The translations under genes were made by a program, and so were the position numbers. Shown here piece by piece: positions 10,933 through 28,607 of a DNA stretch of 64,000 nt. The notes beneath the pieces are model-generated. The model searched no databases. It was given only the letters and a program-made list of their open reading frames with translations, and was not told the origin of the DNA. This DNA is from Gloeobacter violaceus PCC 7421 (GTDB lineage Bacteria; Cyanobacteriota; Cyanobacteriia; Gloeobacterales; Gloeobacteraceae). The DNA lies in assembly GCF_000011385.1 (NCBI RefSeq), contig NC_005125.1, positions 186,001 through 250,000 on the forward strand. The letters run 5' to 3'. Within the stretch, counting starts at the first letter, position 1; every line of letters begins with the position of its first letter.

Positions 10933-11093
10933 CACTTCTCGCCCTTTGCGGACGAGAGTTCCCGGTTTGACGAGCCGACTTGTACGTACGTAGAAGTCGT
11001 TCTCTCTCCAGGCGTTCAAGAGGCGACAAAGTAGGGTCTCATCCTCTCTGAACAAGCATTCCAAGCATCGATACAGATAAGAAATTCGAAACA

Positions 11094-11900
11094 GTGCCCC
11101 GAGCCCAAACAAAAAAACGACGAAGAAGGCATGGTCTGCCTCGACCTCCAGATTGTACGTCCTCTGCCTGTGCTCCAGAGCCTACAGCCCAGCCACCCAC
11201 AGCCGCTTGCCATCGGCCGCCTGCACCCGCCCGCTCGCCAACTTCGAGCTTGTCCGCGGCGGTTCAGCCTTGGCCTTGCAGGTAAAACGGATGCTCCCCG
11301 GTCACCGTCGACGTGTCGCGCTCACCATTCCCACCCGTTTCGCGCGACTGCAGCCTGTAGACTGGCTGGCTGTCGAATTGGAAGGTGCTTTTGACCCTTC
11401 GCAGAGTTTGCTCGCCGGTCTGAAAGGTGCTCTTCACCCGGCGTAAACTCTGCTGGCCGGTCCGCTCGCTTCTGGCGAGGACCTTCTCGCCCGGTTCGAT
11501 TTGTTCGATGGGTTTGGCCCGGGTTTCGGTTTGGACCGCGGTCCCTTCGCCGAAACAGCCGTACGCTCGACTGGCGGCGACGATCCCATTTCTCAGACCG
11601 ATACCTGCTTTGGCAAACCCCCCGAACGGTACCAGAGCAAAACCAGAAGTCAACACCCCCGCCGCATCGCCCAGTGCCGCCGCCACCCCGACGCCCAGCA
11701 GGGCCGAGGGCACGTTCAAATCTGGGATCAATCCCCCGACATCTGCCAGCAGCTGCAACGCCCCGAGCACTCCGACCAGGTCCAGATGGGCAGAAAGAGG
11801 AGCCATCGAGGCGTTGACCTTGAAGCTCGACGAAGCCGTCAGATTCACCCCGGCCACCTTGACCACCAAGGGGTCGGTGCCGGCGTTCGTCGTTAACAGG
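11094..11900 (-). pseudogene. Decayed Rhs-Hint cassette (copy farthest from the intact gene)
   Basis: A degenerate copy of the 3' part of the Rhs gene at 22031-27898. Still readable are the last TIG strand (VVKVAGVNLTASSSFK), the pretoxin segment (VGVLGALQLLADVGGLIP) and the Hint start (GCFGEGTAVQT). Damage: a deletion in the AKAG..LRNG linker; an internal duplication that repeats the LRRVKSTFQ block; TGG to TGA at the GQGWTAAD position (about 11262); a frameshift after GER; and another stop in the later Hint segment. After the TYNLEVE..H.FFV block similarity ends and neither VHNEC nor a recognisable toxin tip can be found. No immunity gene follows. Confidence 0.75.
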
Positions 11901-12026
11901 ATACCTGGATCTGCATGACTTCAATGTTATCGGCTTGGATAGCCCGGTATAACAGGTATCAAACCCAACTCTTCAGTTCGCCAGTTAGGATTGCCTGTAA
12001 AACCTATTTTTCTATTACTTGTGTAT

Positions 12027-12512
12027 TCAGCTATTCACCAGAATCGCCCCCTTTTTCGAGGGATCAAAACCCCTTGGCCAAAGGGTTCTTAAGTTATAAA
12101 AAGCTCCCTCAAAATTCGCTTCTTCCAAGCGCTTGCACAGCATGTTCGCATCGCAAAGATTTGCGGCTTTAAAACTTGCCCAAGCGATATCTGCGCCTTC
12201 TAAATTCGCTTTTGTCAAATTCGCACCATCGAAATCCGTGGCAATTGGACGCGCCTTCGTTAGAATCGCCCCGGTGAGGTCTGCGTTTCTTAACCACGAG
12301 TTCATCATGCGCGATTCCGACAGATCGGCTTCTGCAAGGGATGCATCGTCAAAAATTGCGCCGCGCAAGTCCGCTTTTTGAAGATTGGCAGCTCTTAAAT
12401 TCACTCCGGATAGAATGGCACGGTGCAGGTTGTAGCCCTTCAAATCCGCTTTCTCAAGTGTATCAACTTGAAGATGAACTACTTCTCCGGTTTCACACTC
12501 GATCGAAATCAT
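12027..12512 (-). CDS. Pentapeptide-repeat protein, probable immunity to the ParB-like tip
   Basis: A 161-residue protein built largely of A(D/N)LXX pentapeptides, roughly residues 18-140 (for example LEKADLKGYNL, LRAANLQKADLRGA, LTKANLEGADIA), expected to form a right-handed quadrilateral beta-helix. Its ATG overlaps the stop of the preceding cassette in ATGA (12509-12512), so it is translationally coupled to the toxin tip. Position, coupling and AT-rich composition make it the candidate immunity protein. Pentapeptide proteins often mimic DNA or bind DNA-acting enzymes, which would suit a nuclease-type toxin; that link is inference. Confidence 0.8.
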   Translation of the reverse strand: MISIECETGEVVHLQVDTLEKADLKGYNLHRAILSGVNLRAANLQKADLRGAIFDDASLAEADLSESRMMNSWLRNADLTGAILTKARPIATDFDGANLTKANLEGADIAWASFKAANLCDANMLCKRLEEANFEGAFYNLRTLWPRGFDPSKKGAILVNS

Positions 12513-13479
12513 TTGCTTCCGTAATCCTCTATATCAATTTTTAAATCACCGAGAGCTTTGGGTTTGACACCTGCCCGCAGGACACCGGGTATTTGTGGCG
12601 GCACAGTTCCAAAAATTCTTCCTGCAACGTACCGGTGGTTTCCATCAATAATAACCCCATCGGCGACTTTGATGGCCGGGGGAGTGCTACCTGCTTCGAG
12701 AAGCCGAACATACCGTTCAACAACAGGAAGCGAAATGCTTCCTTGAAGGGTCTTCAAAGGCGCGTCTTGAAGCGCGGCTCTAATTATCTCTTCTGTAACC
12801 ACAGATGGGCACTCGTTGTGCACCCAGGCTTTGGAGTCGCCGACGAAGAAAGTGTGGTCCCTCTCAACTTCCAGATTGTAAGTCCTTTGCTTTTGCTCCT
12901 GCGCCTGCAGTCCGGCCACCCGCAGCCACTGGCCATCGACCGTCTGCACCCGCTCCCCGACTTGCAGCTTGTCTGCGGCTGTCCAGCCCTGGCCTTGGAG
13001 AAAGAACGGGTGCTCCCCGGTCACCGTCAGCACATCGCGGTCGCCGTTCCCATCGATTTCCCGCAACTCCAGCCGGTAGACCGGCCGGTTGTCGAATTGG
13101 AAGGTGCTCTTCACCCGGCGCAATGTCTGCTCACCAGTCTGCTCATTTCTGGCGAGGACTTTTTCGCCTGGCGCGACAAGCTCGATGGGTTTGGCCCCAG
13201 TCTCGGTCTGAACCTCGGTGCCTTCGGCGAAACACCCGCACGCCCGGCTCGCGGCGACGATCCCTCTGCTCAGACCGGTTCTGGCTTTGAGCAGACCTAC
13301 TCCAGCTTTGGCGAAGCCCCCGAACGGCACCAGAGCCAGGCCAGAAGCCAACGCCCCCGCCGCGTCAGTGCCGCTGCCACCCCGATGCCCAACAGAGCCG
13401 AGGGCACGTTCAGCCCGGGGATCAGCCCGCCCACATCTGCCAGCAACTGCAACGCCCCGAACACACCCACCAAATTCAA
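12509..13479 (-). pseudogene. Rhs-Hint cassette with ParB/sulfiredoxin-like toxin tip, frameshifted
   Basis: A partial copy of the Rhs gene 3' end. From a TTG at 13479 it reads NLVGVFGALQLLADVGG...VAAAL; then four bases (GGTG) are missing relative to the other copies near 13370, shifting the frame. From AAGALASG onward a second frame is open through a complete Hint domain (CGCFAEGTEVQT, TVTGEHPFF, AWVHNEC) to the stop at 12509. The tip of about 100 residues contains VVERYVRLLEAG...GVIIDGNHRYVAGRIFG, a ParB/sulfiredoxin-like motif seen in polymorphic toxin nucleases. The Hint-toxin part looks functional if recombined into an intact 5' end, but the cassette has no good start of its own. Coupled to the pentapeptide immunity gene. 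Confidence 0.75.
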
Positions 13480-13521
13480 GCCTGCCCGAAGAGAAACGTT
13501 CCAATACGGCTACTAGGCAAG

Positions 13522-13872
13522 CTAGTTCTTGATTCGGCTTGCCTCCAACGCTCCTTTCTCCGTTGCTTCGAACCACGCAATTTCACCCAAGTTTGGGTCT
13601 CTACCCAAAGCATCCCATTCGTTCTCTATACGCTTAATAACTTCGATCGGTTGTATTTCCCAAACCACAAAACTCCCATCACTCGAAAAACTTCCAGCTT
13701 GAATCAATCCCTCCCGCAACAACTCTTCTATTATTTGCAGCGTTTGGTATCGAATCTTGGTTGAGTCATGTTGTTTGAGTAGTTTGTGGAAATGCCAAAC
13801 GACAGACCATAGGCCAACGTAGTCTTCACAACTCTCAACGAGAATGGAGTTGTGCACTGAACTCAGTGCCAC
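13522..13872 (-). CDS. Probable immunity protein (unknown family)
   Basis: A 116-residue soluble acidic protein with no recognised domain. It starts at ATG 13872, 13 bases after the stop of the cassette at 13886, in the same orientation. It is more AT-rich than the surrounding cassette backbone, the composition seen for all the small genes that follow toxin tips here. The sequence has a helical N-terminal half (YVGLWSVVWHFHKLL) and a strand-rich end (SFVVWEIQPIEVIKRI). Assigned as immunity purely from context. Confidence 0.65.
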   Translation of the reverse strand: MALSSVHNSILVESCEDYVGLWSVVWHFHKLLKQHDSTKIRYQTLQIIEELLREGLIQAGSFSSDGSFVVWEIQPIEVIKRIENEWDALGRDPNLGEIAWFEATEKGALEASRIKN

Positions 13873-13885
13873 GGCTCTTCCTCCA

Positions 13886-14884
13886 CTAAGGGTTAAATTT
13901 TATTTTTTTGAATGGAATTCCCGGAACGTTGATGTCTACTGTAGCAGCTGTTCGAGGACTTCGGGTTGCTTGTGTTCTAAGCCCGATGACACCGCCATCG
14001 GAGCGAATAATCCTGAGACCTGGGTACCCAGGATTCATCTCAACTCTTCCGCCTTGAGTCAACTTGTCAAACAGGTTGAGTGCTTCATATATGCCGCCTT
14101 GAACTTCTCTAATGCTTGGGCTGCTTCCCGGCTGTCCTATTGGATTACCGTAGGGCAACAAAATATCGGTTATGCACTCGTTATGCACCCAAGCACCGGT
14201 ATTGCCGACGAAGAAGGTGTAGTCCCTCTCAACTTCCAGATTGTACGTCCTTTGCCTCTGCTCCTGTGCTGCCAGTCCAACGACCCGCAACCACCGGCCA
14301 TCGACCGTCTGCACCCGCTCCCCGACTTGCAGCTTGTCTGCGGCTGTCCAGCCCTGGCCTTGGAGAAAGAACGGGTGCTCCCCGGTCACCGTCAGCACAT
14401 CGCGGTCGCCGTTCCCATCGATTTCCCGGGGTTTGGCCCCAGTCTAGGTCTGAACCTCGGTGCCTTCGGCGAAACACCCGCATGCCCGGCTCGCAGCGAC
14501 AATCCCATTTCTCAGACCGGTTCTGGCTTTGAATAGACCCACCCCGGCCTTGGCAAATCCCCCGAAAGGCAAGAATGTCAGTCCGAACCCGGCCGCACTG
14601 GCTGCGTCTCCGAGCACAACCGAAGCGCCGATGCCCAGCAAAGCCGAAGGCACGTTCAGACCGGGGATCAGCCCACCGACATCCGCCAGCAACTGCAACG
14701 CCCCCAACACCCCGACCAAGTCCAGGTGCGCTGATGGTGGGGCAGTCGAGGCGTTGACTTTCAAACTGGAGGCGGCCGTCAAGTTGACCCCAGCTGCCTT
14801 CACGACCAGAGGGCCGGTACTGGCGTTCTCCGGAAGCGAGACCTGGATCTGCGTGGCGCTGACCACCACCGTGGTGGCTGCCAT
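13886..14884 (-). pseudogene. Rhs-Hint cassette with nonsense codon and Hint deletion
   Basis: A copy of the Rhs 3' end beginning inside a TIG domain (VVVSATQIQVSLPEN) and continuing through the pretoxin segment to CGCFAEGTEVQT. There a GAG to TAG change (14444-14446) stops translation. In the same frame, 41 codons present in sister copies are missing between GAKP and REIDGNG, removing much of the Hint core. The rest (VTGEHPFF through AWVHNEC) and a tip of about 95 residues are open to 13886. The tip ends with GGVIGLRTQ...VDINVPGIPFKKIKF, a pattern I associate with RNase-like polymorphic toxin tips but cannot assign. Without splicing activity or readthrough this copy is silent. Confidence 0.8.
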
Positions 14885-14976
14885 GTCAGGGATGAGAACC
14901 TCGGCAGGACAAGATTGATACCGCCAAAAAGATCCCGATATGGCACAAAAAAGAAACGAAGATAATCAGTTATATA

Positions 14977-15513
14977 TTATTCGTCTGTTTGGAGTGATTC
15001 CGCCCCGTTGCTGACAGCATACTTCCATTTTCCTTTGTATTCGCTTTCAAACCAGATATACCTGTGATAAACCCCCCTAAAATGGTAGTCAAGCTTGTGA
15101 TGATCTTTGAACCAGCAGACTGAACCCTCTTTATCAAGGAGTACAACACCCTTCTCATAGATGAGCAAAATATCTTCGTAAACTGGTTCAAATTTTGTAT
15201 AATAAAGGCCGAAGTCGTCACATTCCTCTCGATTGAGTTGAATAGCAATGGTGAGCTTTTTTGCGACCGCGTCGAAATGATAAACGTCTTTTCCAGTATG
15301 ATTCAGCAGTATTCCGTAGCGCGAGTCTCCACTTTTCCAGAAGTCGATAAACATGCTTCCGGTTAATAGGCTACTGTGCTTGTAGTCAATAGGTAGGTCT
15401 TGTTCGGGATAAAACGTTACGCAAGCATCCCTCCAGCCAAAATCGAGATAGCCATGGCCCTCGAAGCTGATGCCATAGCTACCCGAACGAGCCGAGTCGG
15501 TTGTCTCAATCAT
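14977..15513 (-). CDS. Probable immunity protein for the PIN toxin
   Basis: A 178-residue protein with beta-rich, aromatic sequence (YGISFEGHGYLDFGW, VYHRYIWFESEYKGKWKYAV) and no signal peptide. Its ATG overlaps the stop of the PIN cassette by four bases (ATGA, 15510-15513), implying translational coupling as in classical toxin-immunity pairs. I do not recognise a named Imm family; the repeating strand pattern suggests a beta-propeller-like or WG-repeat-like fold, which is a guess. Low GC content compared with flanking backbone. Confidence 0.65.
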   Translation of the reverse strand: MIETTDSARSGSYGISFEGHGYLDFGWRDACVTFYPEQDLPIDYKHSSLLTGSMFIDFWKSGDSRYGILLNHTGKDVYHFDAVAKKLTIAIQLNREECDDFGLYYTKFEPVYEDILLIYEKGVVLLDKEGSVCWFKDHHKLDYHFRGVYHRYIWFESEYKGKWKYAVSNGAESLQTDE

Positions 15514-16109
15514 GGAGAGATCCTCGCTGCTCCGATACCCCCAAGTTTGACGAGCGCATTATAAAATGCTTTGTCAAAAGTGATCACTGGCGTTCCACTC
15601 AGTAAGCCAGTTGTACCAATAATCGCATCACCATCAAGTCCTTTGATAGAGCTGTAAGAAACGATCTTTGGATTGTTCATGAGTGTAAAATCAGAAATCG
15701 CTCTACGGAGTCTAGCCTGTGTTGTCACATCCACGGACTCCTCGAAAATTGGCAGCCTGCGAGCGACACTCGGGAGTCCGTCAAGTTCCCCTCTTGTCAC
15801 CAAATCTTGGAGTTCCATCAAGGTTTGGCGAGTGACGAAGGGTTTCTCTCCTGAGTTGATCAGTTTTAGAGCATCCTGGAATCGAATAACAGCATTGGTA
15901 TCCAAGAGTACTCTTCCACCTGCTTTAGCAAAGCCCCCAAATGGCACCAACGCCAGACCCGACAGCGCCGCCCCCGCCGCGTCTCCCAACACAATCGAAG
16001 CGCCGATGCCCAACAAAGCCGAGGGTACATTCAGACCAGGGATCAACCCACCGACATCTGCCAACAGCTGCAACACCCCCAACACCAGAAATGTTGAATC
16101 AATGGACAT
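15510..16109 (-). CDS. Hint-less Rhs cassette with PIN-domain nuclease tip
   Basis: The ORF starts in the end of the adjacent IS (MSIDSTFL) and runs directly into the pretoxin segment LGVLQLLADVGGLIPG...LVPFGGFAKAG. The usual Hint domain is absent: FAKAG is followed at once by a PIN-like domain of about 125 residues. Acidic residues expected for the metal site are visible in VLLDTNAVIRF, the LMELQDL glutamate, GLDGDAIIG and ITFDKAF. PIN domains are Mg2+-dependent RNases common in VapC toxins. The 5' end was cut off by the IS insertion at about 16085. Translationally coupled to the putative immunity gene. Release of the toxin from the carrier would need something other than Hint cleavage. Confidence 0.75.
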   Translation of the reverse strand: MSIDSTFLVLGVLQLLADVGGLIPGLNVPSALLGIGASIVLGDAAGAALSGLALVPFGGFAKAGGRVLLDTNAVIRFQDALKLINSGEKPFVTRQTLMELQDLVTRGELDGLPSVARRLPIFEESVDVTTQARLRRAISDFTLMNNPKIVSYSSIKGLDGDAIIGTTGLLSGTPVITFDKAFYNALVKLGGIGAARISP

Positions 16110-17154
16110 ATGTACACGCTCTGGGCAGCCGCGCTCTACGCCTCTGGCTACCGAGTAATTTTCCTAGCCAATGCACATAACTGATTTCTTGGCACATACA
16201 ACATTGCAAGTAGCGCAACTTATCCAACCGTTGGCTCCCCCAAATCTTCGGCACGCTCACCAGTTCCAGCAACAGGTGGGCAATCAGGGTGATGTAGAGC
16301 TGCATCCGGATGCCATTCTCACTTTTTGTCATCAGCCGCTTCAGCTTCAAATGCATTTTCAGAAACTTCCATAACAGCTCTATTTGCCAGCGTTGACGGT
16401 ACAGTTCCATCACCTCCTCGTCCCTGACTAACCATTCGCCCTCGCCAGGCAAATTGGTGACCAATCGATACTCAGCCCGGTTCTCGATATCGCAGAAGTT
16501 GACCACTCGATACATCCCGGACTCTTTGCCCGTTCCCACCCGCATCCGTCCAGCATTGCCCTCGAAGGCGAGCTTGTAGTTGCTCGGGATGCGCATTAAA
16601 AAATATTTGCTTGATGCCTGGGCATTTTTTAGATATTCCAGTCCTGCAAAGCCCCGGTCGAATATACCTACGCCATTTTCAGGAATCGCTTGAAGCATTT
16701 CATTAACAAAATTAGAATCGTGGTCGTAGCCAAAGTTGATCAGGCTACCCTCGGTGGTGCCGCTGCCGTGTTCAAGGCAGGTGAGCAGTTTGACCTGGTG
16801 ATAGTCTTGTGCCCATAGCAATTTGCTTGTCAAGCCGACTACCGTTGAGTCAATTGGGCAAGGATGTAGTTTTTTAGCGGGCAGTTCTCGCCTGACCCGG
16901 ACCAGCAAGGCCTGATACAACTGCTCGAAGATTTGGAGAGAGCGGGACTTGCAGGCTTTGGAAAAAGTGGAGATATCGACGGGGATGCCAGTGTGGTTGA
17001 CGCGTTTGAAGAGGTCCCGCATGCTGACGGTACTTTTGTCCATCACCAGGGCAAGCCAGCAACTGAAAAAGAGCCTGGAATCGAGAACAGGAAAATCATC
17101 ATTGGGCAAGGAAGACAGAGCGGTTTTGACAAGTTGCGGAAAATCGAGTAGCAT
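16099..17154 (-). CDS. IS4-family DDE transposase
   Basis: A 351-residue transposase of the IS4 group. The catalytic triad is visible: Asp in PIDSTVVGL, Asp in GIFDRGFAGLEYL, and Glu in the Y-(2)-R-(3)-E-(6)-K signature YRQRWQIELLWKFLK. The N-terminal helical part resembles DNA-binding regions of IS4 transposases. The stop lies two codons inside the left inverted repeat. The frame is complete with no damage, so the element may be active. A hairpin with a T-run lies just upstream of the start and would block read-in transcription. Confidence 0.9.
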   Translation of the reverse strand: MLLDFPQLVKTALSSLPNDDFPVLDSRLFFSCWLALVMDKSTVSMRDLFKRVNHTGIPVDISTFSKACKSRSLQIFEQLYQALLVRVRRELPAKKLHPCPIDSTVVGLTSKLLWAQDYHQVKLLTCLEHGSGTTEGSLINFGYDHDSNFVNEMLQAIPENGVGIFDRGFAGLEYLKNAQASSKYFLMRIPSNYKLAFEGNAGRMRVGTGKESGMYRVVNFCDIENRAEYRLVTNLPGEGEWLVRDEEVMELYRQRWQIELLWKFLKMHLKLKRLMTKSENGIRMQLYITLIAHLLLELVSVPKIWGSQRLDKLRYLQCCMCQEISYVHWLGKLLGSQRRRARLPRACTYVH

Positions 17155-17267: not shown

Positions 17268-17600
17268 TTAATCAAAGACAGTAAGAATCTCGCCTTTTCC
17301 TATATCTTTTCCATCCCATAGTCTAAATTGCGTACCGGATCTAAGTCGAGGTTTTATGTACTCAGGAAACAAAAAAGTTATGGGAAGAACCGAAGTCGAG
17401 CCGGGCTGAAGATAAATGTACGCTTGATCCATGGAAAACGTACAGTCGAAAGCTTCACTTTCCAACATAAACACACAGCCATGCTTCATTTCTGGTCAAG
17501 GTAATGCCCTTCCGCCTTCTTCCTTAGTGAAAAGGTAAATCCTGGCAAGAATATCCGGTTTCAGACTTTGTCTATCGTACTGCTCATCAGAATTAGGCAT
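17268..17600 (-). pseudogene. Broken paralogue of the immunity gene at 19911-20240
   Basis: Reading from ATG 17600 gives MPNSDEQYDRQSLKPDILARIYLF, then ALP, a TGA where the paralogue has Trp, then PEMKHGCVFMLE and an open frame to the stop at 17268. The downstream part is similar to the 19911-20240 protein throughout (LQPGSTS, KPRL..GTQF.LWDGK.IG.GE). One TGG to TGA change therefore inactivates an otherwise complete immunity gene, unless internal start at the MKHGC methionine gives a 73-residue fragment. No cognate toxin remains next to it; the IS4 element and two small palindromic elements flank it. Confidence 0.8.
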
Positions 17601-17924: not shown

Positions 17925-18197
17925 TTATTTGATAGAACGGTTAGCTTCTAAAAAGTCTAAGACCTGCCAAATAGGCTTTGAGAACATGTGTTCGCTGAGA
18001 CGAATTCCGTAATATTTGAGGCATTTCTCAAAAACGATCCCCAAATCATCCATATAGATATCATGGATTGTCGCCGAGTCCGAGACGAAAAATGGTCGTT
18101 CATCGGGCTCAAACAATGCAGTAAAAAACTCTTGTGCCTGTTCAGCCCTTTTACTCATCTCAATCGCCGCACCCAAGAAAAATCTATTCTCGGACAT
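17925..18197 (-). CDS. Probable immunity protein (small, unknown family)
   Basis: A 90-residue mostly helical acidic protein (for example RAEQAQEFFTALF, IFEKCLKYYGIRLSEHMF) with no known motif. It begins at ATG 18197, 23 bases after the stop of the Hint cassette at 18221, same strand, and is AT-rich like the other candidate immunity genes. Role assigned from context only. Confidence 0.65.
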   Translation of the reverse strand: MSENRFFLGAAIEMSKRAEQAQEFFTALFEPDERPFFVSDSATIHDIYMDDLGIVFEKCLKYYGIRLSEHMFSKPIWQVLDFLEANRSIK

Positions 18198-18220
18198 ATT
18201 AGCTCCTTAAACTTGTGAAA

Positions 18221-19507
18221 CTAAAACGGAACATAACGACCACTCCTAATTGAGTTAATAATGTTCCTCTCCCTGATCGGTCCAACCGAAATGATCTCAA
18301 ACTTGTCACTTGCTACGGTGATTCTTAGCAAACGACCTTGTACCTCCTGGATGACGTTTATGTTTGGCTTGTCAAAGGGGCTTACATTAATCGGACCCGC
18401 ATCCAGGAATCGCCTTGCACCAGGTTCGTTGATCAGGCGGTTCAATCGCTCTTCTGTAAGTTGACCAGCCAGACCACCCAATCTTTTGTCCTTAAGCTGT
18501 TCCACGACTCGCGTGTTGAGCTTAAACAGAGGGCACTCGTTGTGCACCCAGGCTTGGTTGTGGCCGACGAAGAAGGTGTGGTCCCCCTCGACCTCCAGAT
18601 TGTACGTCCTCTGCCTGTGCGGTTGCGCTTCCAGTCCGGCCACCCGTAGCCACTTGCCATCAGCCGCCTGCACCCGCTCCCCGCTTTTCAGTCGCTCTGC
18701 CGCGGTCCAGCCCTTGTCTTTGAGGAAGAACGGGTGCTCCCCAGTCACCGTCAGCGTGTCGCGCTCACCCTGCCCATTGGTTTCGCGCAACTCCAACCGG
18801 TAAACGGGCCTATCATCGAACTGGAAAGTACTCTTCACCCGGCGTAAACTCTGCTCGCCGGTCTGCTCGTTTCTGGCCAGGACTTTCTCACCCGGCTCGA
18901 CAAGCTCGATGGGTTTGGCCCCAGCTTCGGTCTGAACCTCGGTGCCTTCCGAGAAACACCCGCACGCCCGGCTCGCGGCGACGATGCCTCTGCTCAGACC
19001 GGTTCCGGCCTTGAGCAGACCCACCCCGGCTTTGGCAACCCCCCCGAACGGTACCAGCGCCAGACCGGAAGCCAACGCCCCCGCCGCGTCACCCAAAGCC
19101 GCCGCCACTCCGATGCCCAAGATGGCGGAAGGCACGTTCAGACCCGGGATCAACCCACCGACATCCGCCAGCAACTGCAACGCCCCCAGCACTCCCACCA
19201 GGTCCAAATGGGCAGAAGGAGGAGCGGTCGAGGCGTTCACCTTGAAACTCGACGAAGCCGTCAGATTCACCCCGGCCACTTTGACCACCAAGGGACCGGT
19301 ACTGGCATTCTCAGGAAGCGAGACCTGGATCTGGGTGGCACTGACCGCCACCGCATAGGCCGCGATGCCGTTGATGGTCACCGAATTGAGGGTGTTGAGA
19401 TTCGTGCCGTTGATGAGCACGGTGTCTGAGGCGCTGGCGCTCAAGACACCGCTGCCTGGATTGCCGACCACCCCGCCGGAAGTGTTGATGCTCGGGGTGG
19501 CCTTCAC
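18221..19507 (-). CDS. Rhs-Hint cassette with intact frame, unknown toxin tip
   Basis: The best preserved orphan cassette, 428 residues from a GTG at 19507. It includes the last TIG domain (INTSGGVVGNPGSG...QIQVSLPEN), the pretoxin segment, a complete Hint domain (CGCFSEGTEVQTE; TVTGEHPFF; AWVHNEC) and a tip of about 104 residues. The tip begins ECPLFKLNTRVVEQL and ends with IQEVQGRLLRITVASDKF and IISVGPIRERNIINSI. I do not recognise the toxin family; the short alpha/beta C-terminal pattern would fit a BECR-type RNase, low confidence. It has no secretion signal and no RHS core, so it should work only after recombination into the full-length gene. Immunity gene follows at 18197. Confidence 0.8.
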   Translation of the reverse strand: MKATPSINTSGGVVGNPGSGVLSASASDTVLINGTNLNTLNSVTINGIAAYAVAVSATQIQVSLPENASTGPLVVKVAGVNLTASSSFKVNASTAPPSAHLDLVGVLGALQLLADVGGLIPGLNVPSAILGIGVAAALGDAAGALASGLALVPFGGVAKAGVGLLKAGTGLSRGIVAASRACGCFSEGTEVQTEAGAKPIELVEPGEKVLARNEQTGEQSLRRVKSTFQFDDRPVYRLELRETNGQGERDTLTVTGEHPFFLKDKGWTAAERLKSGERVQAADGKWLRVAGLEAQPHRQRTYNLEVEGDHTFFVGHNQAWVHNECPLFKLNTRVVEQLKDKRLGGLAGQLTEERLNRLINEPGARRFLDAGPINVSPFDKPNINVIQEVQGRLLRITVASDKFEIISVGPIRERNIINSIRSGRYVPF

Positions 19508-19690
19508 GTCATCAGTAGGTGACCTGGGAAATTCTGAACCTTCAGGGCTTAAAGTCTGCTCAGGGAGAGGCTCTCGTCAGAAAGACCTTCGGTTTTTCCG
19601 ATTCCCATACTTAGAAGCTGGACAGTGTTTGTATAACAGCGGCTGAATCACAAGCTTGCAGTTTTTCCGGGTCAGGAACGAAAAGTGCGA

Positions 19691-19910: not shown

Positions 19911-20240
19911 TCAATAAACAGCAAGAACCTCACCCTCTCCTATTTCTTTTCCATCCCACAGCTTGAATTGTGTACCCGGTCTAAGGCGAGGTTTTACGGA
20001 ATCTGAAAATAGAAATTTTACGGCAAGGATTGAAGTCGAGCCAGGTTGAAGATGAATGTATGCGTCATCCGCAGTGAACGTGCAGTCAAATGCTTCATTT
20101 TCCAACATGAGTACGCAGCCATGCTTAATTTTAGGCCAGGGCGACATTCGTCCTCCCTTCTCTTCTGTGTAAAGGTAGATTCTGGCAAGAATATCAGGTG
20201 ATAGACTTGTCCTATTGAGCGTTTCGTCAGAATTGAACAT
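19911..20240 (-). CDS. Probable immunity protein, EF-Tu-like beta-barrel pattern
   Basis: 109 residues from ATG 20240. The C-terminal half (STSILAVKFLF...KPRLRPGTQFKLWDGKEIGEGEVL) resembles the strand pattern of translation-factor beta-barrel domains (EF-Tu domain 2/3, F.LW.G..IG.G.V). It follows the ADP-ribosyltransferase-like cassette by 74 bases. A mutated paralogue lies at 17268-17600. One inferred possibility is that it acts as a target mimic or protects an elongation factor, but that rests on sequence resemblance alone. Confidence 0.7.
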   Translation of the reverse strand: MFNSDETLNRTSLSPDILARIYLYTEEKGGRMSPWPKIKHGCVLMLENEAFDCTFTADDAYIHLQPGSTSILAVKFLFSDSVKPRLRPGTQFKLWDGKEIGEGEVLAVY

Positions 20241-20314
20241 GAATCGCAAATACTCCTTCGCAAAACTGTATGCAGAATGGCCCGTTAATCATTGCATCAC
20301 CGCTTGTGTATCCG

Positions 20315-21469: not shown

Positions 21470-22018
21470 CTACCCTTCGTGCAAACGCTTCACCGCCTCC
21501 AACACTTCCTCCACTGGTATGTGCTCAAATTCGTAGACAGCCTCGATGCGATCGAACGTTGGTTGTGGGGCATGGAAGTAGGCTAAATCAAGCTCTACGT
21601 CGCCGTAGATCCACCAGCCTAAGGAGGGTGGAAAAACTGCGTACGTGCTAGCGACAAATACAACGGGCGGAGAGAAGCTATTCAACGTCGGATAGTAGTC
21701 GGATTCGGTATCCTCGGTCGTGAACCCCACCGCTGGGTAGGTACCGTAGAGTTGAAAGAAGGTTCCTGTCCTCTCTCCATGCCTGATGATGCCTTCTAGT
21801 GGATCCGGCTCCACCGTTATGTACACGAAAGATCTGTCGGCACTGATTGTTAGTGCCTCTTTCAGGAAAGCGAAAAACCCCTTAGACCGCAAGCTATCAG
21901 GGTCAAAGAAAATGGATGTTTTGGCAAAAACAGGATCTTCTGCTTTGTCAATGCCAGGGAATTTCTTTGCGATGGAATAAAGGGCAATGAACCTGTCTGG
22001 ATCAGTGATATAGGGCAT
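21470..22018 (-). CDS. Probable immunity protein for the full-length Rhs toxin
   Basis: A 182-residue soluble acidic protein starting 12 bases after the stop of the full-length Rhs gene, same strand, so almost certainly cotranscribed. It has aromatic strand-rich segments (RSFVYITVEPDP, PSLGWWIYGDVELDLAYFH) and a helical C-terminus (VEEVLEAVKRLHEG). No named family recognised. Position immediately after the variable tip of the only intact toxin is the basis for the immunity call. Between it and the next cassette (21323-21469) there is only a remnant of the repeated backbone. Confidence 0.7.
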   Translation of the reverse strand: MPYITDPDRFIALYSIAKKFPGIDKAEDPVFAKTSIFFDPDSLRSKGFFAFLKEALTISADRSFVYITVEPDPLEGIIRHGERTGTFFQLYGTYPAVGFTTEDTESDYYPTLNSFSPPVVFVASTYAVFPPSLGWWIYGDVELDLAYFHAPQPTFDRIEAVYEFEHIPVEEVLEAVKRLHEG

Positions 22019-22030
22019 GTATTTCTCCAG

Positions 22031-25000
22031 CTATTTAAGCCGCAGCTTTAGTACCTGCTCACCGTTGACTAGGAGTTCGGCAGTTGGGGGACCAGATTTC
22101 GAAAAACTGCGCAGATAGTACTCAGTAGCCCCTTTTGAGAAGCGCAATATATCTCCTTTCAACGCTTCAATTGCTGGCAGTTCGGCGAATCCATTATCCA
22201 ACAGGTTCTCCCTAAATTCATCAACAGATACATCCGTTCGGATATTTCTGGTAGTAGTTTTTCGCCGCGTCACGTCCAAGTATTGAGAAGCCAAGCCGGT
22301 CGGCAGACACTCGTTGTGCACCCAGGCCCGGGTGTCGCCGACGAAGAAGGTGTGCTCCCCCTCGACCTCCAGATTGTACGTCCTTGCCCTCTGCTGTTGC
22401 GGCTGCAATCCAACGACCCGCAGCCACTTGCCATCGACCGCCTGCACCCGCTCCCCGCTTCTCAGTCGCTCTGCCGCTGTCCAGCCCTTGTCTTTGAGGA
22501 AGAACGGGTGCTCCCCGGTCACCGTCAGCGTGTCGCGCTCACCCTGCCCACCCGTTTCGCGCAACTCCAACCGGTAAACGGGCCTATCGTCGAACTGGAA
22601 AGTGCTCTGGACCCTGCGCAAATTCTGCTCGCCGGTCTTTTCGTTCCTGGCGAGGACTTTCTCGCCAGGTTCGACCTTCTCAATCGCTTTGGTCCCGGTC
22701 TCGGTTTGGACCTCGGTGCCTTCGGCAAAACACCCGCATGCCCGGCTCGCAGCGACAATCCCATTTCTCAGACCAGTTCTGGCTTTGAATAGACCCACCC
22801 CGGCTTTGGCAAACCCGCCGAAGGGCAAGAATGTCAGCCCGAACCCGGCCGCACTGGCTGCGTCTCCGAGCACAATCGAAGCGCCGATACCCAGCACAGC
22901 GGAGGGCACGTTCAGTCCAGGGATCAGCCCACCGACATCCGCCAGCAACTGCAACGCCCCAAGCACGCCCACCAGATCCAGATGCGCCGAGGGGGGAGCC
23001 GTCGAGGCGTTGACCTTGAAACTCGACGAGGCCGTTAGATTCACCCCGGCTGCCTGGACCACCAAAGGCCCAGTCGTGGCGTTCTCAGGCAAGGAGACCT
23101 GGATCTGGGTGGCACTGACGGCAACGGCATAAGCCGCGATGCCGTTGATGGTCACCGAGTTGAGGGTGTTGAGATTGGTCCCGTTGATGAGCACGGTGTC
23201 GGAGGCGCTGGCGCTCAAGACACCGCTGCCCGGATTGCCGACCACGCCCCCGGAGGAATTGATCGTCGGGGTGGCCTGTACGTCGAAGAAGCCGCCGCTG
23301 GCTGTCCCTCCCGCCGTGGTGACCGAGACTGCCCCGTCGGTGGCACCGGTGGGCACCGTTGCCGAGATTTGGCTTGCGGAGACAACCGAAAAGCCGGCGG
23401 CAGTAGCGTTGAACTTGACCGAGGAGGCGCCTGTGAAGTTTGAGCCGTTGACCGTCACACTCGCCCCGACCGCCCCGGCCGTAGGCGACAGGGAACTGAC
23501 CGACGGGGGGGCGTTGACCGTGAAGCTGCTGGGGCTGGTGGCCGTGCCCGCCTCCGTCGAAACGCTGATCGGACCACTGGAAGCACCTGAGGGCACCGAC
23601 AGGTTCATCTGGGTGCCCGAGGAGGACACCGAGAGAATCGAAGCGGCCGTGCCGTTGAAGGCCGCGCCGTACAGGTTGTAAAAATCCGCGCCGGTGACGG
23701 CGATGTTGTCCCCGGCCTTGCCGCTGCTCGGGCTGAAGCTTGAGATCGACGGCGGCACAATCACCGTGAACGTCGCATTGTTGGAAGTGCCGCTTTTGGT
23801 GGTGACATTCACCGGCACGCCGTAGTAACTCGGCAAGCCCGAAGGCACAATCGCCTTGATTTCGCTTGCCGAAGTGGAAGTGATCGTGGCGGTAAGGCGG
23901 TTATCGAATTGGACGGTCGGGGCGTAATTGAGATTGGCGCCGCTGAGGGTAACAGTGGAACCTGTCACTCCCCGGCCAGGACTGATGCTGTTGATTTGCG
24001 GTGCGGGCGGCAGCACCTCGAAAGTGACCGAATCGGGCTGGTAGTAGGTGCCGTCATACACCGAGTAGCCGTCGGCCGTCAGGGTGTAGACCCCCGGTGG
24101 CGTGGCGGTGCTCGTCTGCACCCTGACGGTGAAAGTGCTGTAAACATACACCGGATCCGGACTGATGCTCGCGCTCAGCCCGGAGGCACTCGGCGAGACC
24201 CGGACGCTGCCATCGACCAGGTCGCTGTTCGGCCCTTCGAAATAACCGCAGATGTTGCCCAGGCTCTGGCCCGCCACGACCGTCAGCGGCAAAGGCGTGC
24301 AATCGAGCGTATCCTGACCGGGGGCGGTGTCGGTTCTGGAGCCGGGCTGGCCCAATTTGACGGACTTGGTCTGGGCGGACTGGGCCAGCCGCTCGACCGG
24401 CCGGGAGATTGTTGAAGGCGAAAGGGTGGCCCGTTCTTTCGAGATGCTCTCGGCTGCCCCGGTAGCACGCGGAGCCTCGGGGGTACTGATGCTCAATCCG
24501 GGCAACGTTGCCACCCCGCGCGGGCGCACATCGGGCCTCAGGCCGGTCGGGTCGCTCGTCGTCACAGGAGCGTTGCCCAGATAGCGGTACAGATTGGTGT
24601 CCCCACCGGCAAAACCAATCGGGTCCTCGGCCATAAACCGCTGGTTGCCCGCGTGGTAGTAGCGCGAGCGCATGTGGTAGACGACGCTGGCGCTGTTGAC
24701 CGCCTCCGCTCCGGCAAACAGCCACAGGTTGTTGCTGCTGGTGTTGCTGGCAGTGACCTGACCGAAGGGCGAATAGCCGTAGCCGGTCTTGATTGCCTGG
24801 GTCGAGCCGTTGACCGCCGCGACGACCGAATTGTTGAGCGGGTCGTGCAGCAGATACTCGTCGGTGCTCCCCTCGCGGCTCATGAACACCTCATCGAGAC
24901 CCAGGCCCACCAGATAGCGCCGCGTCGTCGAACCGGTTTTTTGCTCGATGACCTGGTTGCCGCTCAGCAAATAGCTGGTGGTCGTGCCGCTGATGGTCTT

Positions 25001-27898
25001 GCCCATGCGCCGCCCGAGCGCGTCGTAGACAAAACTGACCGTAAAGCCGGCGTTGTTGGTGTAGCTGCTCAGCTGGTTGCGGGCGTTGTAGGTGAAAGTC
25101 ACCTTGGTGGAGCCGACGTTCTGCTCGACGAGGTTGCCGCTCCCGTCGTAGATAAGCGTGCCCCCTTCGAAGGCGGTCATCCGGTTGGTGCCCGCTTCGT
25201 AACTTGGTGTGGTCGAAGCGCCCGGCCGACTGCTGGAAGTCAAATTGCCGTCTTTGTCGTAGGCGTTGGTATAGTTGCCCGCCGGGGTGGTGGCCCCGGT
25301 CAATTCCCCGGTCTCGTTGTAGCTGTAGCTCTGGGAGGTGGCCACACTCGGCGTCGAAGGCCCCGATTCGGTGCGGCTAGTCAAATAGCCGCGCGTCGAA
25401 TAGTCGTACTGGTATGCGATTTCCCGAAGCAGTGTACCCCCCGGACCGCTAAAGAGCGCCCGCTCCACCTCGCCGCCGTCGTTGTAGAACAGTTCTTCTT
25501 TGATGCTGTTGGGGTAGTTGATGGACTTGAGCGAACCGTCCGGGTCGTACTCGAAACCGACCACGGCGTTGTTTTGGTCGCAGGTGCTATTGCCGCACAA
25601 CCCAGCTGTCGCCAGACTGGCGTCGTCGTCTTTGTAGTCGTAGTTGATGAGTGGGGTGGCGCTGGCGTCGCTGGTCCCCTTTTTGATCGACGTGAGGTTA
25701 CCGGAAGCGTCATAGAAGTATCTGACTGTCTCGCCCGTGCCGATCCGCTCGGTTTTCAGGCGGCTGACTTGGTCAGTGCCGGTAAAGTACTCGAAATAGA
25801 CGTTGCGGGCGCCGGAAGCGTCGCTACTATCGGTGATCGAGGCCACCTGGTCCAGGGTGTTGTAGGAGTAGGTGAGCTTGGTACCGTCGGCAAAAGTGAC
25901 GTAGCGCAGGCGCTGCTTGGAACCGTACTCGTACAGCGTTTCTTGACCCCGGGCGTTTTTGTACTTGCTCAGCAAACCAAGATTGTTGTAAGAAAAGTAC
26001 TCGGTGCGGCCTGCCTGGGCGCGGGTGGCCACCCGGTCCATGGGGTCGTAAGTGTAGGTGGTCAGCACGCCGTTGGGGGCTTTGACACTGGTGACGTTCG
26101 AGTTGTCGTCGTAGGTAAATTCGGTGATGCGCCGAGTGTTGCTTGCATCGCTCGGGCTGGTGATCTTGATGAGCCGGTTGAGCGTGTCGTAGCTGTATTC
26201 GGTCCAGCGATTGGTCTGCTCGAACTGATAGCAATAAAAGACCGCTTTGAGGCGCGAGAGGGTGTCGTAACGAAAACAGGTCTGCACCCCCGAAGGGTCG
26301 GTAATATAATGCGGATCCTGGTTGGCGGTCCCCGGTGTGATGTAGTTGTTCGGGTAATCGAAGTACTCGAACTCGGTGGTGCGGCCCTGGCCGTCCACCA
26401 CCCGCGTCGCCTGACCGTAGGGATTGTAAGCTTCAAAAGAGGTGTTCTCAGGCAACTGGTCGGCGATCGATTTGAGCGAACCTTTGTAGCCGCTGTTCTC
26501 GTAGCTGCCCGCCGGGTCATTGTACTCGTAGTAGGTCGATTGGTTGTTGGGCGTCGTAACGCTGTCGATCTGTCCAAAGGGGGCTGTGAAACTGTAGGAA
26601 GTCCGTCCGGAATCCGCCAGTTCGATGCCGCTCAAGTGGCGAAAGTAGCTTCCGTCGTAATCGAAACGAGTCTGCTGGCCGTAGGCGTTGGTAAAACGCG
26701 TCAGATCCCGCGTGCTCGGATCGTACTCGAAACCGTAGGTCGCAGCGGCATCGATGGCGTAGCTGAAAGCGGTAATCTGCTGCGTCGAGGCATCAAAATT
26801 ATAAGTAACTTTATCCCAATTTTGTTTGTCGGAAGTCTTGTAGAGGGCGTCGTTGACCGCCGTGCTGCCGGTGCTGTAGACGTACTGGGCGAGCACATCG
26901 TCGGCGGTGTACTGGTCGCCGTTGGCACCGGGTCTGCCGTCCATACCCGGCAAAGTTTGCAGAGTGACCCGTCCTGCCTGTCCACTGGTGTTGAAATTCT
27001 CGTAACTGTTGGTCAGCCGCACGGTGCCGCGCGGGTCGGTGATCTTCGTCAAATAGTGATTTTGATATTCGTAGGTGGTCAGGCCGTTGACGGTGCGCGT
27101 GGTGCCGTCCGGGTTGTTCACCGACTGGCCGTCCATGGCGTTGTGAAAATATTGCAAGTCCCCGGCACTGTTGTATTCGTAAAGCACACTGCCGCCGACG
27201 GCACCCTGGTTGTCGTAGAGCGTTGCGGTGCGCACCTGGTGGGTAAAAGTTGCGTCGTAGGTAAAGTCGATGCGCCGCCCAAACGGATCTTGCACGCGGG
27301 TGAGGTTGTTGCCGCTGTAGCTAAAGGTGATCGCCTTGCCAAATCGGTCGGTGAGGCTGTTGAGCTGGCGCGTGCCGCTCAGGGTCGCAGAAAAGCTCAG
27401 CACCAGACCGCTTTCGAGCGTCAGCACCAGCGTGCTGCTTGTGGCGTTGCCGCTCACGGTAAACGAGCCGCGAATCGGGTCGCTGGGGTTGGCGTTGCCG
27501 TAGGAACCCGCAGGAGCACCGCTCACCCCAGTGGCAAACAGCTGCGCCCCGCCGGTGGGCAGGGACAGCCGCACCTTGGTGATCTGCCCGGCAACATCGA
27601 GCACCGGGGCGGCGCGCAGGCTGTAGAGGCCCATGTGGGTACCGGGGCCAAAGGGACCAGGATAAGAAGTGAGCGGCGTGCGGTCTTGCTCGGAACTCTG
27701 GTAGTGCCGCTGGAGCATCAGCGGGTAGCGCCCGCCCAGGACCAAGTCCACCGTGTCGTAGGCGTAGTGGCCACTGACAACATCCACCGAGGCGCTCGCC
27801 GCCTGCAGCGCGAAACCACCGCAGTAGACGAACAACACCAGCAGGCAGACAGCGCGCCGCAAAGCCGCACGCCAACGACTCAGGAAGGCATTTCTCAT
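22031..27898 (-). CDS. Full-length secreted Rhs/YD-repeat polymorphic toxin with TIG and Hint domains
   Basis: About 1955 residues from ATG 27898 (a GTG at 27952 is also in frame). Domains: signal peptide (basic n-region, VCLLVLFVYCGGFAL core, cleavage after ASASV); Rhs N-terminal DUF6531-like segment (SGHYAYDTVDLVLGGRYP); long YD-repeat shell, about 190-1060; RHS core (MRSRYYHAGNQRFMAEDPIG..., about 1076-1120); a linker; four IPT/TIG domains, about 1297-1634; hydrophobic pretoxin segment (VGVLGALQLLADVGGLIPG); Hint domain from Cys1723 (CGCFAEGTEVQT) to His1861-Asn1862, followed by Glu-Cys; and a 93-residue tip ending TAELLVNGEQVLKLRLK. Hint cleavage after Asn1862 would free the tip, whose family I do not recognise. 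It is the only copy with secretion signal and shell, and heads the cassette array. Its immunity gene follows at 22018. Confidence 0.92.
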   Translation of the reverse strand: MRNAFLSRWRAALRRAVCLLVLFVYCGGFALQAASASVDVVSGHYAYDTVDLVLGGRYPLMLQRHYQSSEQDRTPLTSYPGPFGPGTHMGLYSLRAAPVLDVAGQITKVRLSLPTGGAQLFATGVSGAPAGSYGNANPSDPIRGSFTVSGNATSSTLVLTLESGLVLSFSATLSGTRQLNSLTDRFGKAITFSYSGNNLTRVQDPFGRRIDFTYDATFTHQVRTATLYDNQGAVGGSVLYEYNSAGDLQYFHNAMDGQSVNNPDGTTRTVNGLTTYEYQNHYLTKITDPRGTVRLTNSYENFNTSGQAGRVTLQTLPGMDGRPGANGDQYTADDVLAQYVYSTGSTAVNDALYKTSDKQNWDKVTYNFDASTQQITAFSYAIDAAATYGFEYDPSTRDLTRFTNAYGQQTRFDYDGSYFRHLSGIELADSGRTSYSFTAPFGQIDSVTTPNNQSTYYEYNDPAGSYENSGYKGSLKSIADQLPENTSFEAYNPYGQATRVVDGQGRTTEFEYFDYPNNYITPGTANQDPHYITDPSGVQTCFRYDTLSRLKAVFYCYQFEQTNRWTEYSYDTLNRLIKITSPSDASNTRRITEFTYDDNSNVTSVKAPNGVLTTYTYDPMDRVATRAQAGRTEYFSYNNLGLLSKYKNARGQETLYEYGSKQRLRYVTFADGTKLTYSYNTLDQVASITDSSDASGARNVYFEYFTGTDQVSRLKTERIGTGETVRYFYDASGNLTSIKKGTSDASATPLINYDYKDDDASLATAGLCGNSTCDQNNAVVGFEYDPDGSLKSINYPNSIKEELFYNDGGEVERALFSGPGGTLLREIAYQYDYSTRGYLTSRTESGPSTPSVATSQSYSYNETGELTGATTPAGNYTNAYDKDGNLTSSSRPGASTTPSYEAGTNRMTAFEGGTLIYDGSGNLVEQNVGSTKVTFTYNARNQLSSYTNNAGFTVSFVYDALGRRMGKTISGTTTSYLLSGNQVIEQKTGSTTRRYLVGLGLDEVFMSREGSTDEYLLHDPLNNSVVAAVNGSTQAIKTGYGYSPFGQVTASNTSSNNLWLFAGAEAVNSASVVYHMRSRYYHAGNQRFMAEDPIGFAGGDTNLYRYLGNAPVTTSDPTGLRPDVRPRGVATLPGLSISTPEAPRATGAAESISKERATLSPSTISRPVERLAQSAQTKSVKLGQPGSRTDTAPGQDTLDCTPLPLTVVAGQSLGNICGYFEGPNSDLVDGSVRVSPSASGLSASISPDPVYVYSTFTVRVQTSTATPPGVYTLTADGYSVYDGTYYQPDSVTFEVLPPAPQINSISPGRGVTGSTVTLSGANLNYAPTVQFDNRLTATITSTSASEIKAIVPSGLPSYYGVPVNVTTKSGTSNNATFTVIVPPSISSFSPSSGKAGDNIAVTGADFYNLYGAAFNGTAASILSVSSSGTQMNLSVPSGASSGPISVSTEAGTATSPSSFTVNAPPSVSSLSPTAGAVGASVTVNGSNFTGASSVKFNATAAGFSVVSASQISATVPTGATDGAVSVTTAGGTASGGFFDVQATPTINSSGGVVGNPGSGVLSASASDTVLINGTNLNTLNSVTINGIAAYAVAVSATQIQVSLPENATTGPLVVQAAGVNLTASSSFKVNASTAPPSAHLDLVGVLGALQLLADVGGLIPGLNVPSAVLGIGASIVLGDAASAAGFGLTFLPFGGFAKAGVGLFKARTGLRNGIVAASRACGCFAEGTEVQTETGTKAIEKVEPGEKVLARNEKTGEQNLRRVQSTFQFDDRPVYRLELRETGGQGERDTLTVTGEHPFFLKDKGWTAAERLRSGERVQAVDGKWLRVVGLQPQQQRARTYNLEVEGEHTFFVGDTRAWVHNECLPTGLASQYLDVTRRKTTTRNIRTDVSVDEFRENLLDNGFAELPAIEALKGDILRFSKGATEYYLRSFSKSGPPTAELLVNGEQVLKLRLK

Positions 27899-28607
27899 AA
27901 GGAACCACCAGAGGAAGGCTAGATAAGTTTTACTGAGCGTGCGCAGGTGCACGCCGCGTCAAGGGCCAAATGGCCCCCTTGCCCAAAGCCGATAGGCAGC
28001 ATGGCACCCATCAACTTTGGAGATAAAGGAGCACCGACTCGGCGCGCTCAAGCCGGAAACGGCTGAAAAATCGCGGTATTGAGCCAGGTCGAAAGCAAGA
28101 CGCTATCCCGCAGCCCAAAGGCAGACAAGTTTGCCGGACTGCGCAGCCAGAAGCGCGTTTTTTTGCTGGGGACTCAGACAAGATACTGGCCTGCATTCGA
28201 GAAGTCAATAGCAAATTCCAGATTTAGTGAGAAAGAATAGCGGGGACACTACCGGCAAACTCTGGAGCGCTCCGGCGCGGTCAAACCTCCAGCGGCAGTC
28301 CTCCAGGGCAAGGGAACTAGACGATCCCCGCCAGTACCCGACAAAAGCGTTCGACTTCCGTTTCGGTAGTTCCGCCTGCGCGCACCGTTCAAACGAACGT
28401 TTCAAGTCGAAGCCCGGAAGATCGGCGCTCATAGGCAGCCTGGCGCAGATGCTCGATTTCGAGGCGGTCACCCCGGCACCACCACACCTCCGCAAGCCGG
28501 TGCAATGGGTAACGGTCTGTAAATTGTTATCTGTGTGACTACTTTTGCGGAACGCACAGGCGGCCTACTGTGGCTATCATTGGGGCTACAGAGCTTGAGG
28601 GCGCGCG
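27899..28607. other. Divergent intergenic region upstream of the Rhs gene
   Basis: About 700 bases with no supportable gene. It must contain the promoters of the Rhs gene (- strand) and the exported protein gene at 28608 (+ strand). An imperfect palindrome AAGGGCCAAATGGCCCCCTT (27961-27980) lies about 60 bases before the Rhs ATG and could be a regulatory or transcript-end structure. A TTGACG on the - strand (complement of 27957-27962) has no good -10 partner. Confidence 0.45.

What the first reader, a model, noticed from the sequence alone, without database searches (positions are those of the whole stretch)
22031..24010. Unusual Rhs architecture: four IPT/TIG domains between the shell and the Hint-toxin
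In typical Rhs toxins the variable tip follows the RHS core directly and sits inside the shell. Here about 740 residues follow the core: a linker, four TIG domains, a hydrophobic pretoxin segment, a Hint domain and the tip. The toxin therefore cannot simply be enclosed by the shell, suggesting a different display or release mechanism.
Basis: partly seen in the sequence, partly recalled or inferred. Interest (0 to 1): 0.7.

Follow-up and report, generated by a model that had tools for sequence, protein, structure and literature searches.

The report
Rhs toxin with Ig-domain stalk
A cyanobacterium, probably Gloeobacter violaceus, encodes a secreted toxin protein in which a stalk of immunoglobulin-like domains separates the usual Rhs protein shell from the self-cutting toxin tip, making the tail too big to fit in the shell and suggesting that the toxin sits outside it.

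Summary
ORF 22031-27952(-) reads signal-like peptide, DUF6531 + Rhs shell, Rhs core (ends residue 1138), disordered linker, one further Ig-like stretch, four TIG domains, hydrophobic pretoxin, Hint/BIL domain, 91-aa tip. 835 residues (85.7 kDa) follow the core, not ~740. It is a real polymorphic toxin: the tip plus the next gene (21470-22018, putative immunity) recur as a pair in a sister species, and six displaced cassettes lie downstream. No T6SS sheath gene was found. In 17 Rhs-Hint proteins of other bacteria the core-to-Hint gap is 51-260 aa; here 597, and 716 and 1286 in two same-genus relatives, one with different Ig-like domains. TIG3-4 are under purifying selection (dN/dS 0.08). The shell matches the three-turn (RhsA) type, whose known cargo is ~15 kDa; the largest known Rhs/Tc cargo read of is ~35 kDa, so the tail cannot be enclosed whole. 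That the stalk lies outside and displays the toxin is inferred: the C-terminal fold prediction failed. Stalk-like domains after Rhs cores also occur in other cyanobacteria, but without Hint or toxin. Verdict: a new variant of Sec-exported Rhs-Hint polymorphic toxins, with a possible parallel to metazoan teneurins.

The parts
27794..27898 (-). Signal-peptide-like N-terminus (residues 19-53; hydrophobic core 34-52, ...LQAASA|SVDV)
   Evidence: Hydropathy peak 2.11 over 19 residues; no lipobox by eye; the sister-genome paralog also begins with one. No SignalP was available.
24539..27790 (-). DUF6531 + Rhs/YD shell + Rhs core (residues 55-1138)
   Evidence: Pfam DUF6531 and RHS_repeat; AF2 model all-beta, pLDDT 72.6; Foldseek best hits T6SS Rhs shells 8qja, 8cp6, 7q97, E 1e-54 to 1e-51
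24539..24775 (-). Rhs-associated core with predicted aspartyl autoprotease (R1097, D1110, D1134; predicted cut after L1138)
   Evidence: TIGR03696 at 1060-1138; spacing R-13-D-24-D equals R2103/D2116/D2140 of BiTLP (PMC13018210)
24311..24538 (-). Pro/Ala/Ser/Thr-rich linker (residues 1139-1214)
   Evidence: pLDDT about 25 in the shell model; composition
24002..24310 (-). Putative extra Ig-like domain (residues 1215-1317)
   Evidence: Judged by eye from the sequence; no Pfam match; strands in the poor model only
22997..24001 (-). Four IPT/TIG domains (about 1318-1397, 1402-1481, 1482-1559, 1561-1652; inner boundaries by eye)
   Evidence: Pfam TIG, 4 stretches; PDB hits 5e7g/5e7h; dN/dS 0.08 for TIG3-4
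22739..22996 (-). Hydrophobic pretoxin segment (residues 1653-1738)
   Evidence: Two hydropathy peaks at 1660-1678 and 1682-1700; conserved in the cassettes
22307..22738 (-). Hint / bacterial intein-like domain (residues 1739-1882; C1741, T1812..H1815, H1879-N1880)
   Evidence: PT-HINT; 2lwy BIL E 8e-14; motif residues read
22031..22306 (-). Variable toxin tip, 91 aa (residues 1883-1973) plus stop codon
   Evidence: No Pfam match; 76% identical tip in a displaced cassette of the sister genome
21470..22018 (-). Putative immunity gene (182 aa)
   Evidence: Directly downstream; 86% identical copy directly downstream of the same tip in the sister genome
20315..21415 (-). Displaced cassette 2 (TIG4 end-pretoxin-Hint-tip, 113-aa tip)
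   Evidence: putative immunity ORF 19911-20249
18221..19576 (-). Displaced cassette 3 (TIG4-pretoxin-Hint-tip, 103-aa tip)
   Evidence: putative immunity ORF 17928-18206
15510..16163 (-). Displaced cassette 4: pretoxin fused directly to a PIN domain, without Hint
   Evidence: Pfam PIN at its gathering cut-off; putative immunity ORF 14977-15513
13886..14965 (-). Displaced cassette 5, interrupted inside the Hint domain (95-aa tip)
   Evidence: putative immunity ORF about 13525-13899
12509..13509 (-). Displaced cassette 6, frameshifted in the pretoxin part; 99-aa tip with a DGNHRY motif
   Evidence: followed by the pentapeptide-repeat ORF 12027-12512
11019..11920 (-). Displaced cassette 7, broken remnant (pretoxin + part of Hint)

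Best explanation
This is a Sec-exported Rhs polymorphic toxin. After export the N-terminal 1,100 residues fold into a three-turn Rhs shell and the core's aspartyl protease probably cuts after L1138. The chain leaves the shell through the flexible 76-residue linker, and the Ig-like/TIG domains fold outside as a stalk of roughly 15-20 nm (estimate, about 4 nm per domain) that carries the pretoxin, Hint and tip. Hint then frees the tip by cleavage at N1880|E1881, without splicing because position +1 is Glu rather than Cys/Ser/Thr. The hydrophobic pretoxin segment may help membrane passage. The toxin acts on competing bacteria and the adjacent gene protects the producer. Shown computationally: domain order, catalytic residues present by sequence, tip-immunity pairing, displaced cassettes, rarity of the long core-to-Hint spacer, constraint on the TIGs. 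Inferred: export, both cleavages, the stalk being outside, toxicity, immunity, target.
For: Domain order. Tail of 85.7 kDa, ~104,000 A3, against shell homologs whose cargo is ~15 kDa (PMC8765631). Disordered linker straight after the core. Core-to-Hint distance 597 aa against 51-260 in 17 other Rhs-Hint proteins. The same-genus relatives keep a stalk of different composition: ortholog TIGs plus NBR1-type Ig, paralog PLipase_C_C-like repeats, gaps 716 and 1286. TIG3-4 dN/dS 0.079. Tip and immunity recur as a pair on another backbone. Cassette array. No VipB in the genome. Eight other cyanobacterial Rhs cores are followed by Ig/cadherin-type domains, most with VWD, FG-GAP or RTX, modules expected to fold in the open. 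Metazoan teneurin C-termini leave the shell (PMC13018210).
Against: No usable structure of the C-terminal part and none of the whole chain. In the bacterial Rhs/TLP structures read about here the C-terminus is inside, and BiTLP has no exit hole. If the core protease cuts, the tail is no longer covalently attached, so display needs non-covalent holding or an inactive protease. No outer-membrane anchor or dedicated exporter was identified. The sister ortholog has lost the N-terminal third of its shell, so the system may be decaying there. TIG dS (1.08) far above shell dS (0.29) implies a different history, which complicates the selection estimate.
Confidence: 0.6

Rival explanations
1. Release rather than display: the core protease cuts after L1138, the 835-residue TIG-pretoxin-Hint-tip fragment leaves the shell as a free secreted toxin, and the TIG domains act as its receptor- or glycan-binding part; the shell serves only as a folding or export aid.
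For: All three autoprotease residues (R1097, D1110, D1134) are present at the BiTLP spacing; TIG matches include IPT/TIG proteins of the SGBP (glycan-binding) type.
Against: In the cleaved Rhs proteins read about here the fragment stays with the shell (PMC8765631, PMC13018210). The stalk is replaced by another Ig-like type in the sister paralog, which fits a spacer better than a specific receptor-binding domain.
Confidence: 0.25
2. The stalk is a by-product of cassette recombination with TIG-rich genes and has no function; the gene may be decaying.
For: Many broken cassettes; the ortholog in the sister species has lost about 390 N-terminal shell residues; mosaic cassettes in the sister genome.
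Against: Intact 1973-aa frame, dN/dS 0.08 for TIG3-4 and 0.17 for shell and Hint, and a stalk kept in all three Gloeobacter long proteins.
Confidence: 0.1
3. The whole tail is threaded unfolded into the shell as in Tc and T6SS Rhs proteins.
For: Solved Rhs cargo is largely disordered inside the shell (PMC8765631).
Against: 85.7 kDa, ~104,000 A3 against a 44,000 A3 cavity in BiTLP, ~15 kDa cargo in three-turn shells and 35 kDa as the largest natural Tc cargo; TIG domains are stable beta-sandwiches.
Confidence: 0.05

Closest known systems
Sec-exported Rhs/YD polymorphic toxins with PT-HINT (Zhang et al. 2012, PMC3482391; that paper uses gll0213 of Gloeobacter violaceus as the type of Ntox36)
   Same: Signal peptide, RHS shell, Rhs core, pretoxin, Hint, variable tip, immunity gene, displaced cassettes
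   Different: A roughly 440-aa Ig-like/TIG stalk plus linker between core and pretoxin; core-to-Hint gap 597 aa instead of 51-260
Bacterial teneurin-like proteins (BiTLP, PMC13018210) and metazoan teneurins
   Same: YD shell with C-terminal toxin-like part; BiTLP has the DPxG autoprotease and BIG-type domains in the chain; in metazoan teneurins the C-terminus passes outside the shell
   Different: No NHL or FN-plug region detected, and no space for them between signal peptide and shell; BiTLP's Ig domains are N-terminal and its toxin (~15 kDa on average in the family) is inside; here the Ig-like domains are C-terminal
T6SS Rhs effectors (RhsA 7q97, Tse5 8cp6, 8qja)
   Same: Closest shell fold and size
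   Different: No PAAR/VgrG part; no VipB in the genome; Sec-type N-terminus; 85.7-kDa tail instead of ~15 kDa
Cyanobacterial Rhs-core adhesin-like proteins with He_PIG/Cadherin/VWD/RTX tails
   Same: Long Ig-like region after the Rhs core
   Different: No Hint, no polymorphic toxin cassette found

Membership tests
Rhs polymorphic toxin (Sec-exported type) | RHS/YD shell with DUF6531 and Rhs-associated core | tested here: met
Rhs polymorphic toxin (Sec-exported type) | Export signal peptide | tested here: met
   Hydropathy and motif only; the paralog has one too; no SignalP
Rhs polymorphic toxin (Sec-exported type) | Variable C-terminal tip with adjacent immunity gene that move together | tested here: met
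   Same tip and neighbour on another backbone in the sister genome
Rhs polymorphic toxin (Sec-exported type) | Displaced tip cassettes | tested here: met
Rhs polymorphic toxin (Sec-exported type) | Toxicity and neutralisation by the immunity protein | not testable with these tools
   Needs expression in E. coli
T6SS Rhs effector | T6SS sheath genes in the genome | tested here: not met
   VipB PF05943 absent, positive control rings
T6SS Rhs effector | PAAR/VgrG or T6SS plug N-terminus | tested here: not met
   No such Pfam match; signal-like peptide then shell
Teneurin-like protein | FN-plug and NHL domains before the YD shell | tested here: not met
   No Pfam match; the shell starts at residue 55
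Teneurin-like protein | C-terminal part leaves the shell (metazoan form) | not testable with these tools
   Size argument only; C-terminal model failed
PT-HINT / bacterial intein-like (BIL) domain | Cys1, TxxH block B, terminal His-Asn | tested here: met
   C1741, T1812..H1815, H1879-N1880
PT-HINT / bacterial intein-like (BIL) domain | Self-cleavage at the C-terminal Asn | not testable with these tools
   Needs purified protein; +1 residue is Glu
IPT/TIG domain | Profile match above the curated cut-off | tested here: met
   Four stretches, 92.5-100.8 bits against a cut-off of 20.9
Tc toxin BC subunit | Partner TcA translocator gene | not tested
   No TcA search was run

The most novel reading that the evidence does not exclude
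A bacterial Rhs protein whose toxin and self-processing module lie permanently outside the YD shell on an Ig-like stalk, with the shell serving as a base, adhesive head or export aid. This would be the arrangement so far known to me only from metazoan teneurins, reached independently or ancestrally in an early-branching cyanobacterial lineage.
Probability: 0.45. Interest if true: 0.68.

Novelty: new variant of a known kind. Interest (0 to 1): 0.5.

Why it matters
The bacterial Rhs/YD structures read about here keep a small (15-30 kDa) toxin inside the shell, and the 2026 teneurin paper proposes that cavity size limits the C-terminus. These proteins exceed the largest cargo named there more than twofold while keeping the core protease residues, Hint and exchangeable tips, so they are a direct test of whether the shell must enclose its toxin. 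They also give a bacterial comparator for the C-terminal exit seen in animal teneurins.

Tried and rejected
Viral-contig scan with the C-terminal region: nothing. Tip by PDB profile search: only chance hits. Tips and neighbour ORFs by Pfam: none. The idea that the TIG regions are shell repeats: rejected by position and profile. T6SS delivery: rejected. The idea that a long post-core region is itself unique to Gloeobacter: rejected, since 13 of roughly 57 cyanobacterial Rhs cores have more than 600 aa after the core, without Hint. TIG plus PT-HINT at one locus in 386 sampled cyanobacterial genomes outside Gloeobacter: none. The same in plasmids: none among the listed records.

Full report
WHAT IS THERE. 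The window lies in a single 4,659,019-base contig. The gene 22031-27952(-) encodes 1973 aa from GTG or 1955 from ATG. In GTG numbering the order is: signal-peptide-like segment 19-53; DUF6531 55-106 and the RHS shell; Rhs-associated core 1060-1138; a disordered linker 1139-1214; an Ig-like stretch 1215-1317 recognised only by eye; four TIG domains 1318-1652; a hydrophobic pretoxin 1653-1738; PT-HINT/BIL 1739-1882; and a 91-aa tip.

IT IS A POLYMORPHIC TOXIN. Downstream on the same strand lie six further cassettes with recognisable TIG4, pretoxin and/or Hint parts, about 70-90% alike in DNA to one another, most ending in a different tip followed by a small ORF. Three are frameshifted or interrupted. 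In the sister genome G003 a displaced cassette on another backbone carries the same tip (76% identical) followed by the same neighbour gene (86% identical). Tip and neighbour therefore travel together, which identifies 21470-22018 as the likely immunity gene. Between the syntenic orthologs, shell dS is 0.29 but TIG3-4 dS is 1.08 and Hint dS 0.62, consistent with the C-terminal block having been exchanged. The published Ntox36 type member gll0213 of G. violaceus (PMC3482391) may be this gene or a neighbour; that could not be checked here.

HOW UNUSUAL IS THE SPACER. A genome scan with the shell returned 71 loci from many phyla, whose Rhs cores are mostly followed by 90-440 aa. In 386 cyanobacterial genomes 41 carry Rhs cores; 13 of roughly 57 analysed proteins have more than 600 aa after the core. 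Eight of those were scanned, and all carry Ig-, cadherin-, Calx-beta- or SdrD-type domains, most with VWD, FG-GAP or RTX, but no Hint. Among proteins with a Hint after the core, ten from these sets and the plasmid hits plus seven from a further Pseudomonadota and mixed sample have a core-to-Hint gap of 51-260 aa; the window protein has 597, its G003 ortholog 716 and the G003 paralog 1286. No TIG plus PT-HINT locus was found in the other cyanobacterial genomes sampled or on the plasmids listed. The combination of shell, Ig stalk, Hint and exchangeable tip was therefore seen only in Gloeobacter in these samples. These are samples, not a census.

THE STALK LOOKS SELECTED. The ortholog has four TIGs plus an NBR1-type Ig domain. 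The paralog has instead about nine repeats of another Ig-like type (PLipase_C_C-like). TIG3-4 has dN/dS 0.08 against 0.17 for shell and Hint. Different Ig-like modules at the same place suggest a spacer function rather than one specific ligand.

CAN THE TAIL BE INSIDE. The shell model (pLDDT 72.6, pTM 0.59) matches T6SS Rhs shells of about 1020-1080 residues best (8qja, 8cp6, 7q97). RhsA (7q97) is of the three-turn class with ~15 kDa cargo (PMC8765631). Four-turn Tc cocoons hold ~30 kDa, at most 35.1 kDa in the natural Photorhabdus toxins (PMC6868009). BiTLP has a cavity of ~44,000 A3 (PMC13018210). The tail here is 85.7 kDa, ~104,000 A3. It cannot be enclosed whole. The linker after the core is predicted fully disordered and is long enough to thread out. 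Metazoan teneurins show that such an exit is possible; BiTLP shows no hole. The C-terminal model failed, so placement outside is an inference.

PROCESSING. R1097, D1110 and D1134 have the spacing of the BiTLP autoprotease (R2103, D2116, D2140), predicting a cut after L1138. The Hint has C1741, T1812..H1815 and H1879-N1880, with Glu at +1, predicting C-terminal cleavage without splicing. If both work, the stalk is cut at each end; whether it then stays attached to the shell decides between display and release. The genome lacks VipB, and Zhang et al. note that HINT was never found with T6SS, so Sec export is the likely route. How the protein crosses the outer membrane is unknown.

VERDICT. It is a new variant of a known kind.

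Noticed in passing
L043 9459-14537 (same-genus genome G003): The syntenic ortholog of the window gene has lost about 390 N-terminal residues of signal peptide and shell, yet keeps core, TIGs, Hint and a different tip; apparently a recent pseudogene.
   Followed up: partly
window 15510-16163; L044 16024-17673: In both species one cassette has the pretoxin fused directly to a PIN-like domain with no Hint, so Hint is not needed in every cassette.
   Followed up: no
window 12027-12808: A tip with a DGNHRY motif (ParB/sulfiredoxin-like to my eye) is followed by a pentapeptide-repeat protein in the place of an immunity gene.
   Followed up: no
window 17271-17577 and 19911-20249: Two copies (74% alike) of a putative immunity ORF; the first follows another small ORF after cassette 3, perhaps an orphan immunity gene.
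   Followed up: no
window 16099-17154: A DDE transposase gene lies inside the cassette array.
   Followed up: no
L044 13767-15200: Mosaic cassette: TIG4/pretoxin start of the window type joined to the other Ig-like type, with the window protein's tip at the end; recombination inside the stalk region.
   Followed up: partly
L139, L144, L148, L155, L157, L165, L141, L159: Other cyanobacterial Rhs cores continue into VWD, Ig/cadherin, FG-GAP, RTX or (L159) a GDSL lipase; a class of Rhs-core adhesin-like proteins that I did not find described.
   Followed up: partly
L053 (Pleurocapsa sp. CCALA 161), 2786-aa ORF: Rhs core followed by about 1,900 aa of cadherin/Tandem-95-like repeats and RTX-like nonapeptides (by eye), suggesting type I secretion of an Rhs protein.
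   Followed up: no
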